From: Prevotella sp.
GTDB lineage: Bacteria; Bacteroidota; Bacteroidia; Bacteroidales; Bacteroidaceae
Assembly: GCA_017395215.1 (NCBI GenBank)
Contig: JAFPVW010000055.1
Coordinates: 1 to 32,772 of the forward strand
Reading direction: 5' to 3'
DNA length: 32,772 nucleotides
The notes under the pieces are model-generated. The model saw only the letters and a list, made by a program, of their open reading frames with translations, ran no database searches and was not told the DNA's origin. The translations under genes were made by a program, and so were the position numbers. Shown one piece after another: positions 6,026 to 9,024 of the stretch. How positions within the stretch are numbered: the stretch's first letter is position 1; every line of letters begins with the position of its first letter.

Positions 6026-7516
6026 ATGCTGAGAAAAATCAGAACCGTATTGGCTGCAGTGATGTTTGTGGGCATTACGCTGCTGTTCCTTGACTTTACG
6101 GGAACGCTGCACACGTGGCTGGGCTGGATGGCTAAGATCCAGCTGCTGCCGGCGGTGATGGCGCTGAACGTGGTGGTCATCATCGCGCTGGCCGTGCTGA
6201 CGCTCGTCTTCGGCCGCATCTATTGTTCGGTTATCTGTCCGTTGGGCATCCTTCAGGACGTGTTGGCGCGGCTGCACCGTAAGAAGAACAAGTACGGCTA
6301 TTCGAAGGAGGTGCGCTGGCTGCGCTATCCCGTGCTGGTGGTGTTTGTCGTGGCAGCGGTGGCCGGCGTCGGTTCGCTGTTCCAGCTGCTGGCGCCCTAT
6401 AGTGCCTTCGGGCGCATTGCGACGATGGTGCTGCAGCCGCTGTGGATGCTGGGCAACAACGTGCTGGGCTTCCTGGCCGAGCGGGCCGACAGCTACGCCT
6501 TCTATACCGTCGACGTGTGGATGAAGTCGCTGCCGGTGCTTATCATTGCCTTGGCGACGCTGATAGTGCTGGCTGTGCTGGCGTGGCGCGGCGGCCGAAC
6601 GTATTGCAATACCATCTGTCCGGTGGGAACGGTGCTGTCGTTCCTTGCGCGCTTCTCGTGGCTGAAGATACGGTTCGACGAGGAGAAGTGCCGTAACTGC
6701 TCGATGTGCTCGAAGAACTGCAAGGCAGCGTGCATCGACTATAAGACTCACTCGGTGGACTACTCGCGCTGCGTGGTCTGCGGCAACTGCATCGAGAGCT
6801 GTAAGTTCGGGGCGCTGAAATATGGTCGGGAGGCCTCCCGCTCTTCTTCATCTAACCAGACACCCCCTCCTTCGGAGGGGCTTGGGGAGGCTTCCCGCCG
6901 CTCATTCCTCATTGGTGCAGCCCTTGTTACGACCGCCGCGATGGCCCAGAAGAAGGAGAAACTGATGGACGGCGGACTGGCCGAACTGGAGGACAAGGTG
7001 GCTCCTGAGCGGCAGACGCCGCTGACGCCGCCGGGCTCGCTGTCGTTCGACCACTATGCCAAGCGTTGTACGGGCTGTCAGCTCTGCGTGTCGGAGTGCC
7101 CGAACGGCGTGCTGCGGCCAACGACCGACCTGATGCACCTGATGCTGCCCGAGATGTCGTATGAGCGCGGCTACTGCCGTCCGGAGTGTACGCGCTGCTC
7201 TGAGGTGTGCCCGGCTGGGGCCATCAAACTGGTTGACCAGGCCGAGAAGTCGTCTGTCCAGATTGGCCACGCCGTGTTTATCCAGAAGAACTGCGTGGCC
7301 GTGACCGACGGCGTCGACTGCGGCAACTGCGAACGCCACTGTCCGACGGGCGCCATCGAGCTGGTGGCCCTCCGTGAGGATGACGAGGAGTCGCCGTGGG
7401 TGCCCGCCGTCAACGAGGAGGCCTGCATCGGCTGCGGTGCGTGCGAGTATGTCTGTCCCGCCCGTCCGTTCTCAGCGATTATCGTTGAGGGGCATGAGGT
7501 GCATAGGAAGATATAA
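6026..7516 (+). CDS. Polytopic membrane 4Fe-4S protein, NapH/NapG-like fusion with an internal Tat-like motif
   Basis: This 496-residue protein probably moves electrons between the membrane and periplasm. About five hydrophobic helices lie within residues 6-187. Two CxxxCP motifs of the NapH type occur at C67/C71 and C194/C198. Two ferredoxin motifs follow at C222-C232 and C249-C259. Then comes a Ser-rich linker, residues 279-289 encoded by a palindromic repeat, and a Tat-like motif with twin arginines R291/R292 and a hydrophobic stretch (SRRSFLIGAALVTTAAMA). The C-terminal half carries four more cysteine clusters starting at C348, C384, C423 and C467. The layout resembles NapH joined to a NapG-like periplasmic ferredoxin. 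The physiological partner is unknown, but the next gene also encodes a Tat-type ferredoxin protein, which suggests a shared redox chain. ATG 6026 lies just behind the promoter. Confidence 0.85.
   Translation: MLRKIRTVLAAVMFVGITLLFLDFTGTLHTWLGWMAKIQLLPAVMALNVVVIIALAVLTLVFGRIYCSVICPLGILQDVLARLHRKKNKYGYSKEVRWLRYPVLVVFVVAAVAGVGSLFQLLAPYSAFGRIATMVLQPLWMLGNNVLGFLAERADSYAFYTVDVWMKSLPVLIIALATLIVLAVLAWRGGRTYCNTICPVGTVLSFLARFSWLKIRFDEEKCRNCSMCSKNCKAACIDYKTHSVDYSRCVVCGNCIESCKFGALKYGREASRSSSSNQTPPPSEGLGEASRRSFLIGAALVTTAAMAQKKEKLMDGGLAELEDKVAPERQTPLTPPGSLSFDHYAKRCTGCQLCVSECPNGVLRPTTDLMHLMLPEMSYERGYCRPECTRCSEVCPAGAIKLVDQAEKSSVQIGHAVFIQKNCVAVTDGVDCGNCERHCPTGAIELVALREDDEESPWVPAVNEEACIGCGACEYVCPARPFSAIIVEGHEVHRKI
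6860..6892 (+). repeat. Palindromic repeat inside a coding region, copy A
   Basis: CCCCTCC (6864-6870) and GGAGGGG (6874-6880) form a 7-bp hairpin with loop TTC, followed by CTTGGGGAGGCT. It is translated as TPPPSEGLGEA. It is flanked by related blocks beginning GGGAGGCCTCCCG (6828) and GGGAGGCTTCCCG (6885), which encode EASR on either side and may be a duplicated target. Confidence 0.75.
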
Positions 7517-7517
7517 A

Positions 7518-7551
7518 AGCCCACCCAAGCCCTCCCGAGGGGAGGGATGTT
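7518..7551 (-). repeat. Palindromic repeat, copy B (inverted, intergenic)
   Basis: This 34-base element begins 2 bases after the 6026 gene's stop codon and is the reverse complement of copy C at 7622-7655 in 32 of 34 positions. It contains the hairpin CCCTCCC (7530-7536)/GGGAGGG (7540-7546) with loop GAG. Confidence 0.85.
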
Positions 7552-7584
7552 TAGATACTTACAATACATTCAAATAATAATAGC

Positions 7585-9024
7585 ATGATGAATCATACAG
7601 ATAATAAACATTCAGGTAATCAACATCCCTCCCTTAGGGAGGGCTTGGGTGGGCTCTCCAGACGCTCTTTCCTGAAACTGTTCGGCGCGGGTGCCGTGGG
7701 CACGGCTGCCGTCGTGGCAGGCTGCAAGGATAAGGTGAGCCAGGAAGTGGCCGACGAGTATAAGAACCAGGTGGAGCCGCCGGTGGGGAAGATGACCTAC
7801 CGCGAGAACCCGAAGACGAAGGAGAAGGTGTCGCTGCTGGGCTACGGCATGATGCGCCTGCCGACGAAGGTAGACAACGACCAGGAGTTCGACCAGGAGA
7901 TGATCAACCGTCAGGTGGACTATGCCATCGAGCACGGCGTAAACTACTTCGACACCAGTCCCGTCTACTGCATGGGGCAGTCGGAGCGCTGCACGGGCAT
8001 CGCCCTGAGCCGCCACAAGCGGTCGGAATACTTCGTGGCCACGAAGCTGTCGAACTTCAACCGCGACTACTGGGCCAAGGAGAAGGCCATCGAGATGTAC
8101 CGCAACTCGATGAAGGAGCTGCAGGTGGACTATCTGGACTACTACCTGCTGCACTCTATCGGCGGCGGCATGGACGAGTTCAACGGCCGCTACGTTGACA
8201 ACGGCATCATGGACTTCCTGCAGGCAGAGCGCAAGGCAGGCCGCATACGCAACCTCGGCTTCTCGTTCCACGGCCAGAAGTCGGTGTTCGACGAGATGAT
8301 GGCGCGCCAGGATGAGTACCACTGGGACTTCGTGCAGATAGAGCTGAACTACCTGGACTGGAACTTCGCCGACGAGATCAACAGCGGCAACGTAGACGCC
8401 AGCTATCTTTACGCCGAACTTGAGAAGCGCGGCATTCCGGCCGTCATCATGGAGCCGCTGCTCGGCGGACGACTGGTGAAGCTGCCGCAGTACCTGATGA
8501 CTGAGCTGAAGCAGAAGAACCCCGAGCGGTCGGTAGCCTCGTGGGCCTTCCGCTATGCCGGTACGCCGGAGGGCGTGCTCACCGTGCTCAGTGGTATGAC
8601 CTATATGGAGCACCTGAAGGACAACCTGCTGACCTACTGCCCGTTGGAACCGCTGACCGACAACGAGCAGGAATACCTGCACGGCGAAGTGGCGCAGAAG
8701 ATTGTGGGCCTGAAGAACATCCCCTGCAACGACTGCAAATACTGTATGCCCTGTCCCTACGGCATTGACATACCGGCCATCTTCGTACATTATAATAAAT
8801 GCAAGAACGAGGGCTCGCTGCCCATGGGCGTGGGCGACAAGGAGTATCGCAAGCACCGCCGCCAGTACCTCATCTCGCTCGACCGCGTCGTGCCCCGCGA
8901 CCGCCAGCCCGACCACTGCATACAGTGCGGCCAGTGTGAGCCCCACTGTCCGCAGGGCATCAAGATTCCCCGCGAACTGATGATGATAGACAAAATGATA
9001 GAAGAACTGAAGAGAAATACATGA
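7585..9024 (+). CDS. Aldo/keto reductase with C-terminal ferredoxin domain, Tat-type lipoprotein
   Basis: The aldo/keto reductase fold covers residues about 60-340 with the expected catalytic tetrad: D123 and Y128 (NYFDTSPVY), K154 (ATKL) and H190 (LLHS). The C-terminal end has two iron-sulfur motifs, C381-C384-C387-C390 and C445-C448-C451-C455. The N-terminus has a Tat-like motif (SRRSFLKLFGAG, R26/R27) and a lipobox (VAGC, C47), so an exported, lipid-anchored protein is likely. Residues about 14-24 come from a palindromic repeat. Family members reduce carbonyl compounds with NAD(P)H; this ferredoxin-bearing subgroup is common in anaerobes but its substrate is not known. Two consecutive ATG codons begin the frame; the first is used here. 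It overlaps the next gene by 4 bases. Confidence 0.9.
   Translation: MMNHTDNKHSGNQHPSLREGLGGLSRRSFLKLFGAGAVGTAAVVAGCKDKVSQEVADEYKNQVEPPVGKMTYRENPKTKEKVSLLGYGMMRLPTKVDNDQEFDQEMINRQVDYAIEHGVNYFDTSPVYCMGQSERCTGIALSRHKRSEYFVATKLSNFNRDYWAKEKAIEMYRNSMKELQVDYLDYYLLHSIGGGMDEFNGRYVDNGIMDFLQAERKAGRIRNLGFSFHGQKSVFDEMMARQDEYHWDFVQIELNYLDWNFADEINSGNVDASYLYAELEKRGIPAVIMEPLLGGRLVKLPQYLMTELKQKNPERSVASWAFRYAGTPEGVLTVLSGMTYMEHLKDNLLTYCPLEPLTDNEQEYLHGEVAQKIVGLKNIPCNDCKYCMPCPYGIDIPAIFVHYNKCKNEGSLPMGVGDKEYRKHRRQYLISLDRVVPRDRQPDHCIQCGQCEPHCPQGIKIPRELMMIDKMIEELKRNT
7622..7655 (+). repeat. Palindromic repeat inside a coding region, copy C
   Basis: Hairpin CCCTCCC (7627-7633)/GGGAGGG (7637-7643) with loop TTA, followed by CTTGGGTGGGCT. 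Translated in frame as HPSLREGLGGL, directly before the SRRSFL motif of the reductase. It matches copy B in inverted orientation and shares its layout with copy A. Confidence 0.85.

What the first reader, a model, noticed from the sequence alone, without database searches (positions are those of the whole stretch)
6860..7655. In-frame palindromic repeats placed before two Tat-like motifs
Copies A and C are translated (PPPSEGLGEA and PSLREGLGGL) and both end just before SRRSFL in neighbouring genes. The hairpin arms differ between copies but co-vary (CCCCTCC/GGAGGGG versus CCCTCCC/GGGAGGG), so hairpin structure seems to be maintained. This resembles protein-inserted palindromic elements such as those in Rickettsia, and the repeated placement before export signals is striking.
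Basis: partly seen in the sequence, partly recalled or inferred. Interest (0 to 1): 0.7.

Follow-up and report, generated by a model that had tools for sequence, protein, structure and literature searches.

The report
In-frame palindromic elements in Prevotella genes
Short hairpin-forming repeats spread through a Prevotella genome, many of them inside housekeeping genes in a single reading frame so that the proteins simply gain an extra loop; the two copies next to export-like motifs belong to this general pattern.

Summary
Named relatives suggest the window comes from a rumen-type Prevotella metagenome bin. Copy A (6860-6892) is the surviving right arm of an in-frame element inside gene 1. 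Copies B and C (7518-7551, 7622-7655) are the two arms of one 138-bp inverted-repeat element, which supplies the start codon and first 24 residues of gene 2. The bin holds 35 arms at up to 2 mismatches (reversed-pattern control 0). By my reading 18 of the 35 lie in frame inside open genes, among them CTP synthase, DapB, MetRS, aconitase and GltB. Around sister genome G157's closest matches, 38 of 57 perfect-stem arms are internal. Codon phase is nearly invariant. Most orthologs compared lack the inserts, so they look mobile, not ancient. A second palindromic family, and other hairpins, occupy some of the same loops in the own bin. The Rickettsia-palindromic-element comparison is supported. The Tat placement is not a rule: 2 of 35 own arms precede a Tat-like motif, both in this window. 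No Y1 (RAYT-type) transposase was found in 8 of 20 genomes examined, six of which carry 41-105 arms; the mobilising enzyme is unknown.

The parts
6026..7516 (+). Gene 1: NapH-like membrane domain fused to a NapG/polyferredoxin-like part, with an internal SRRSFL segment; host of copy A in its variable linker
   Evidence: ORF; Pfam Fer4 families; NCBIfam NapH (175-266) and NapG (290-486), both below their curated cut-offs
6832..6839 (+). Remnant (GGCCTCCC) of the deleted left arm of the gene-1 element
   Evidence: DNA alignment with L082, L083, L102, L167, which keep the left arm
6852..6891 (+). Copy A: surviving right arm unit (CTA variant of the GTA tag, ACAC, 7-bp stem 6864-6870/6874-6880, tail CTTGGGGAGGC), in frame
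   Evidence: consensus; tag variants
7518..7551 (-). Copy B: left arm of the second element, just behind the stop codon of gene 1
   Evidence: inverted repeat I1
7622..7655 (+). Copy C: right arm of the same element, coding for QHPSLREGLGGL in the N-terminus of gene 2
7518..7655 (.). Complete second element (B + 70 nt + C), containing the start codon of gene 2; folds as one long hairpin
   Evidence: same element in G157 (L082), absent from most orthologs read
7585..9024 (+). Gene 2: aldo/keto reductase with ferredoxin-like C-terminus and Tat-lipoprotein-like start; first 24 residues come from the element
   Evidence: Pfam; many orthologs start MEKKNISRRSFLK or similar

Best explanation
A and B/C are copies of a dispersed, REP-like mobile palindromic element. 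Its unit is about 40 nt (GTA tag, ACAY, 7-bp hairpin, G-rich tail CTTGGGGAGGC), often present as an inverted pair of about 95-150 bp. It inserts between genes, at gene ends and inside genes. Insertions inside genes persist where they fall in a permissive loop, linker or terminus and are read in the one phase that gives a Pro/Ser/Gly/Glu-rich peptide (ASPSPSEGGDV...GNQTPPPSEGLGEA) without a frameshift. The protein then carries an extra, probably flexible, loop. In gene 1 the permissive place is the variable linker before the SRRSFL segment; in gene 2 it is the unconstrained N-terminus. That is why both copies lie before a Tat-like motif. Shown: dispersal, in-frame location, fixed phase, lineage-specific presence. 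Inferred: mobility by a hairpin-based (probably single-strand) process with an unidentified enzyme, flexibility of the added loop, and purifying selection as the cause of the phase bias.
For: Copy number: 35 arms in the own genome at up to 2 mismatches, control 0; found in 134 of 200 genomes of the genus, 0-128 arms each. Location: 18 of 35 own arms internal and in frame, 7 overlapping an N-terminus, 2 a C-terminus, 8 intergenic or unassigned (my reading); automatic rule: 15 of 32 own and 38 of 57 G157 perfect-stem arms internal. Host genes by Pfam in the own genome: GltB, DapB, CTP synthase, MetRS, aconitase, DsbD, GH97, biotinyl protein, and at 3-mismatch arms MetH, FeoAB and GH3; in G157: DnaE, UvrA, Mfd (TRCF), class I tRNA synthetase, Era-type GTPase. 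Phase: 22/23, 24/24, 5/5 and 1/1 arms by stem type and side. Internal pair distances are divisible by 3 in 19 of 19, other pairs in 7 of 13; this follows from the fixed phases and is not independent of them. Recent insertion: most gene 1, gene 2, DapB and CTP synthase orthologs aligned lack it; a clean empty site in an ABC-F gene.
Against: No target-site duplication or exact boundary could be fixed. No autonomous copy or dedicated transposase was found. The internal class relies on open frames, a home-made codon score and Pfam, not on proteomics. The own genome is an 85%-complete bin with 5.9% contamination, and it may be mixed: it holds two MetRS-like genes, C78 with the element (about 90-92% DNA identity to G157) and C45 without it (about 80-82%), so some arms could come from a foreign contig. 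Some insertions are shared by related species (MetRS, gene 1), so counts of copies are not counts of events.
Confidence: 0.85

Rival explanations
1. The elements are classical REP/REPIN sequences moved by a Y1 (HUH) REP-associated transposase, and are merely unusually often intragenic.
For: Inverted pairs of a short hairpin with a conserved GTA tag 12 nt before the stem look like REPINs; Y1 genes occur in 12 of 20 genomes searched, two of them in the own genome.
Against: No PF01797 match in 8 of 20 genomes, which carry 105, 57, 63, 41, 43, 50, 9 and 13 arms (of the eight, G196 is 89% and G157 93% complete, the other six 99%). Of 24 Y1 loci, with about 1.5 kb on each side or less, one (L159) has a single weak match and 23 have none. 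In own locus L039 the Y1 gene lies between copies of a different palindrome (read by eye). The tag is GTAA or GTAT in 59 of 89 arms and GTAG in none of the listed variants.
Confidence: 0.25
2. The repeats were placed before Tat motifs for a function, e.g. as hairpins or linkers tuning export.
For: A and C both precede SRRSFL; other N-terminal copies precede what look like lipoprotein or other signal peptides (L044, L047, L048, L050; judged by eye); TatC is present. All 4 linkers with an arm precede RR, against 26 RR of 67 overall, but these are related species.
Against: 2 of 35 own arms; many coding copies are in enzymes that are normally cytosolic; gene-1 linkers mostly precede KR, not RR; most orthologs read lack the insert.
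Confidence: 0.05
3. The inserts are old linkers that became alike by gene conversion or convergent low complexity, not by movement.
For: Gene-1 linkers are variable and often low-complexity, and some of the same loops carry different palindromes in sister species.
Against: Near-identical 40-nt units in many unrelated genes; alleles without insert in relatives; intergenic copies.
Confidence: 0.07
4. Assembly or binning artefact of metagenomes.
For: Own genome is a fragmented bin, possibly mixed (two MetRS-like genes); repeats favour misassembly.
Against: Same inserts at the same gene positions in other genomes (L082, L083, L102, L244); 99%-complete genomes in two contigs (G146, G132) carry 41 and 43 arms; CTP synthase with three palindrome types lies inside one ORF of one contig.
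Confidence: 0.03

Closest known systems
Rickettsia palindromic elements (RPE); Wolbachia counterparts are known to me from memory and a search listing
   Same: Dispersed palindromes inserted in frame into unrelated genes, adding a peptide (PMC10969869 passages; PMC3733652 section 15)
   Different: Different phylum; gut bacteria, not obligate intracellular; here one codon phase holds almost without exception, and two families occupy some of the same loops in sister species. Sequences were not compared.
Intragenic GTAG/CGTC REPs (e.g. Opitutus terrae, Rickettsia conorii, Thauera)
   Same: REP singlets and dimers within ORFs, often DNA repair genes such as uvrA, also tRNA synthetases; tags giving stop codons to neighbouring genes (PMC3733652 section 15)
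   Different: Tag GTAA or GTAT in 59 of 89 arms, GTAG not among the variants listed; 38 of 57 arms internal in the G157 loci by the rule
REPIN/BIME with RAYT (TnpA-REP)
   Same: Inverted pair of short hairpin units
   Different: No Y1 gene found in several high-copy genomes, and no Y1 locus clearly flanked by the element
MITEs
   Same: Short, terminal inverted repeats, multicopy
   Different: No target duplication or parent transposon found; each arm is itself a palindrome

Membership tests
Rickettsia-type protein-inserted palindromic elements (as a kind) | multicopy palindromic DNA | tested here: met
Rickettsia-type protein-inserted palindromic elements (as a kind) | in-frame insertion in unrelated conserved genes, absent in orthologs | tested here: met
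Rickettsia-type protein-inserted palindromic elements (as a kind) | host proteins expressed with the insert | not testable with these tools
   needs proteomics
Rickettsia-type protein-inserted palindromic elements (as a kind) | sequence homology to RPE families | not tested
   no RPE sequences were compared
GTAG/CGTC REP superfamilies | GTAG or CGTC tetranucleotide at one end of the unit | tested here: not met
   of 89 arms 38 have GTAA and 21 GTAT at the tag position, no GTAG; CGTC or its complement near the 5' side in 1
RAYT-mobilised REP/REPIN | cognate Y1 transposase in the genome | tested here: not met
   no PF01797 match in 8 of 20 genomes that carry copies
RAYT-mobilised REP/REPIN | transposase gene flanked by the repeats | tested here: not met
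   23 of 24 Y1 loci without a match, one weak match in L159
MITE | terminal inverted repeats | tested here: met
MITE | target-site duplication and a parent transposon | tested here: inconclusive
   one clean empty site (ABC-F) too diverged to fix boundaries; no systematic search for a parent transposon was made

The most novel reading that the evidence does not exclude
Rumen Prevotella carry several unrelated families of hairpin-forming mobile DNA (the window's family, the GCCCCCTCGGGGGC family, and unclassified hairpins) that repeatedly land in the same loops of essential proteins. The elements have evolved so that one reading phase, readable from either strand, encodes a tolerated flexible peptide, and they are moved by an enzyme other than the REP transposase. 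Protein loops would thus serve as the main habitat of a selfish DNA class and as an engine of loop diversity.
Probability: 0.4. Interest if true: 0.82.

Novelty: new variant of a known kind. Interest (0 to 1): 0.66.

Why it matters
In the papers I saw, in-frame palindromes are described in Rickettsia and a number of other bacteria. A Prevotella lineage with dozens of copies in DnaE, UvrA, MetRS, CTP synthase and similar genes, and closely related species that differ copy by copy, makes the old question testable: how does selfish DNA survive inside essential genes, and does it create new protein segments? Some of the same loops being occupied by different palindrome families in sister species is not mentioned in the passages I read, apart from recB of two Xanthomonas species carrying different REPs at about the same site (PMC3733652 section 15). 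It also warns annotators and structure predictors about non-homologous loop insertions in Prevotella proteins.

Tried and rejected
Tat-linked placement: rejected. A target duplication GGGAGGC-TCCCG around copy A looked possible at first; the alignment with relatives explains the left part as the remnant of the lost left arm. RAYT as mover: not supported. Autonomous copy: I only looked over the arm coordinates and the groups for a widely spaced outward pair and saw no obvious one; the DNA between arms was not scanned for transposases. Regular-expression attempts on gene-1 linkers missed many or all rows; replace them (14 of 81 sources still unread). Pfam of the two internal ORFs C24 and C119 was not obtained, so these 2 of the 18 internal arms rest on open frame and codon score alone; C98 (2 arms at 1286 and 1402) lies in low-complexity sequence before a DUF5675 domain. 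Of the 79 own hits at up to 3 mismatches the statistics use the 35 at up to 2 mismatches; the own set is drawn from the regions I chose among these hits; the G157 set is the surroundings of its 45 hits at up to 1 mismatch, not all 105 arms. In DapB and CTP synthase only the 30 best loci each were aligned, of 106 and 105 genomes with a match. The list (21 rows, one an antisense reading) was made with a phase-specific expression, so it is not used as evidence for phase; one search is. Of 15 G157 sites sought in the own genome, 11 were found and read; 4 gave no usable match.
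Full report
What is there. In gene 1 (6026-7516; NapH-like membrane part fused to a polyferredoxin-like part) the segment 6860-6892 reads PPPSEGLGEA in frame, directly before SRRSFL. In gene 2 (7585-9024; aldo/keto reductase with ferredoxin-like end) 7623-7655 reads PSLREGLGGL, again before SRRSFL. A third, reverse copy at 7518-7551 forms with the gene-2 copy a 34-nt inverted repeat 70 nt apart. As single-stranded DNA this 138-nt stretch folds far better than shuffles (z -9.7), whereas the single arms do not. The motif is found 3 times in the window at up to 3 mismatches against none in 100 shuffles.

A dispersed family. With up to 2 mismatches the own genome (3.6 Mb, 211 contigs, 85% complete, 5.9% contaminated) has 35 arms, reversed-pattern control 0. 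In the genus 134 of 200 genomes have at least one, up to 128. In the order 44 of 198 genomes have a match, most of these only one to four, with separate expansions such as G373 (33) and G201 (19). Arms often come as outward-facing pairs. The consensus unit is GTA, then mostly A or T, ACAY, a 7-bp stem with a 3-nt loop, then CTTGGGGAGGC (class I) or CTTGGGTGGGC (class II). A third class ends GGGGGTGG. Stem covariation is one split between two classes: 63 and 26 of 99 arms. Many of the 80 named orthologous contigs bear rumen or other ruminant-gut names, or RUG numbers (rumen genomes, by recall); the own genome itself is unnamed.

Inside genes, in one phase. I classified the 35 own arms from the table: 18 internal (open frame running at least 60 codons both ways), 7 overlapping an N-terminus with an upstream in-frame start, 2 forming a C-terminal tail, 8 intergenic or unassigned. 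Pfam places own-genome inserts in or beside domains of glutamate synthase, methionine synthase, glycosidases, MFS and RND transporters, FeoA-FeoB, CTP synthase, DsbD, DapB, MetRS, aconitase and a biotinyl protein; these include weaker-match copies beyond the 35 arms. With a fixed rule, 15 of 32 own and 38 of 57 G157 perfect-stem arms are internal. G157 host genes include DNA polymerase III alpha, UvrA, Mfd, a class I tRNA synthetase, an Era-type GTPase, an ABC-F protein and GltD-like oxidoreductases. The codon phase is nearly invariant: class I left arms 22 of 23, right arms 24 of 24; class II left arms 5 of 5, right 1 of 1. Inner distances of internal pairs are divisible by 3 in 19 of 19, of other pairs in 7 of 13; the first number follows from the fixed phases. 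Some N-terminal copies show other phases, so I infer that selection, not the insertion mechanism, sets the phase.

Recent insertions. Many gene 2 orthologs begin MEKKNISRRSFLK or similar. Inserts are present in the window, G157 (L082) and G151 (L084) of 30 genus loci, and in L165 of the 77 readable named loci; L165 and L084 carry another class than the window. Gene 1: the full pair is present in frame in L082, L083 and L102, with a remnant in L084. Of 67 linkers read from the window and 80 named loci, 4 have an arm (window, L167, L191, L199), L199 of another class; L191 and L102 have the same linker. The window allele has lost most of its left arm. DapB: 3 of 30 aligned loci carry an insert at one loop, two class I and one class III. 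CTP synthase: palindrome-derived inserts at four loops in different species; a solved CTP synthase (9kao) lacks them at three of these places, the fourth not being cleanly separated in the alignment.

Same loops, other palindromes. I looked up 15 sites where G157 has the window's family in the own genome; 11 were found and read. One, MetRS on contig C78, has the same element. Four (DnaE, Mfd, amylase, one ABC-F site, the last with only the right arm clear) have a second palindromic family (unit ...GTAATGAAGCCCCCTCGGGGGCAGTAGGGGGGGCTT; peptide GNEAPSGAVGGA). One is empty, and five have other loops. Three of those five contain an 8-bp perfect hairpin (0, 2 and 6 of 1000 shuffles do as well) and two do not. 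The bin also has a second MetRS-like gene on contig C45 without the element, mostly about 80-82% identical to the other two, while C78 is about 90-92% identical to G157; the bin may therefore be mixed, and C78 need not belong to the window's organism. Gene-1 linkers without the element also hold more hairpins than expected: 10 of 63 with a stem of at least 7 bp against 1.5 (these rows are related species, so this is suggestive only).

Tat motifs. Only A and C among 35 own arms precede an SRR motif. In gene 1 the twin arginine is KR in 41 of 67 linkers read. The genome has TatC, so gene 2 may well be exported, but the repeat does not mark export signals. Several other N-terminal copies overlap what look like lipoprotein or signal-peptide starts (L044, L047, L048, L050), which fits tolerance of N-terminal extensions.

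How it may move. The paired hairpin layout suggests a single-strand hairpin process as in REPINs, but a Y1 transposase was not found in 8 of 20 genomes with up to 105 arms, and 23 of 24 Y1 loci show no copy nearby, the other one weak match. The mover is unknown; this step is inference.

Against the literature. I read section 15 and passages of PMC3733652, and passages of PMC10969869, PMC12306157 and PMC6006769. Intragenic REPs, RPEs and their frequency in repair genes are known. My nine searches, seen as listings, showed no report of in-frame palindromes in Prevotella; the library lacks most subscription papers. I file this as a new variant of a known kind.

Noticed in passing
own-genome loci L004, L023, L042, L372, L373, L380, L381, L385, L391; no clear copy in the window: Second palindromic family (GCCCCCTCGGGGGC core), seen in frame in DnaE, Mfd, amylase, ABC-F and CTP synthase, at four loops where G157 has the window's family.
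   Followed up: partly
L039:1200-2700 (own contig C48): A Y1 transposase gene (YIHQNP type) lies between copies of a different palindrome, GGGGACAGTCCCC...TGTGAG, which looks like its own REP system.
   Followed up: no
L291-L300 (CTP synthase) and intergenic DNA before gene 2 in L095, L101, L205: Other short repetitive sequences (peptides like SEELRVKSEE and NSSLFTLHSSL; DNA such as AACTTTGAACTTTAAACTTTG) also sit in the same protein loops and in the operon gap.
   Followed up: no
L358-L370 (G373, another family of the order): A homogeneous expansion of a related palindrome with an internal third hairpin, several copies nested between longer flanking inverted repeats (CAGTCTGTAAATAATCCATTGATAAGC).
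   Followed up: partly
antisense strands of L336, L337, L338, L341, L351, L353: Because the element is an inverted repeat with matched phase, the strand opposite the gene also reads ASPSPSxGG...PPxEGLGEA.
   Followed up: no
own contigs C78 and C45 (L076, L375): Two MetRS-like genes in the bin, one with and one without the element; a sign of a mixed bin or a paralogue.
   Followed up: partly
window 6026-7516: Gene 1 looks like a fusion of a NapH-like membrane protein and a NapG-like ferredoxin with an internal signal-like segment that is KR in most linkers read.
   Followed up: partly
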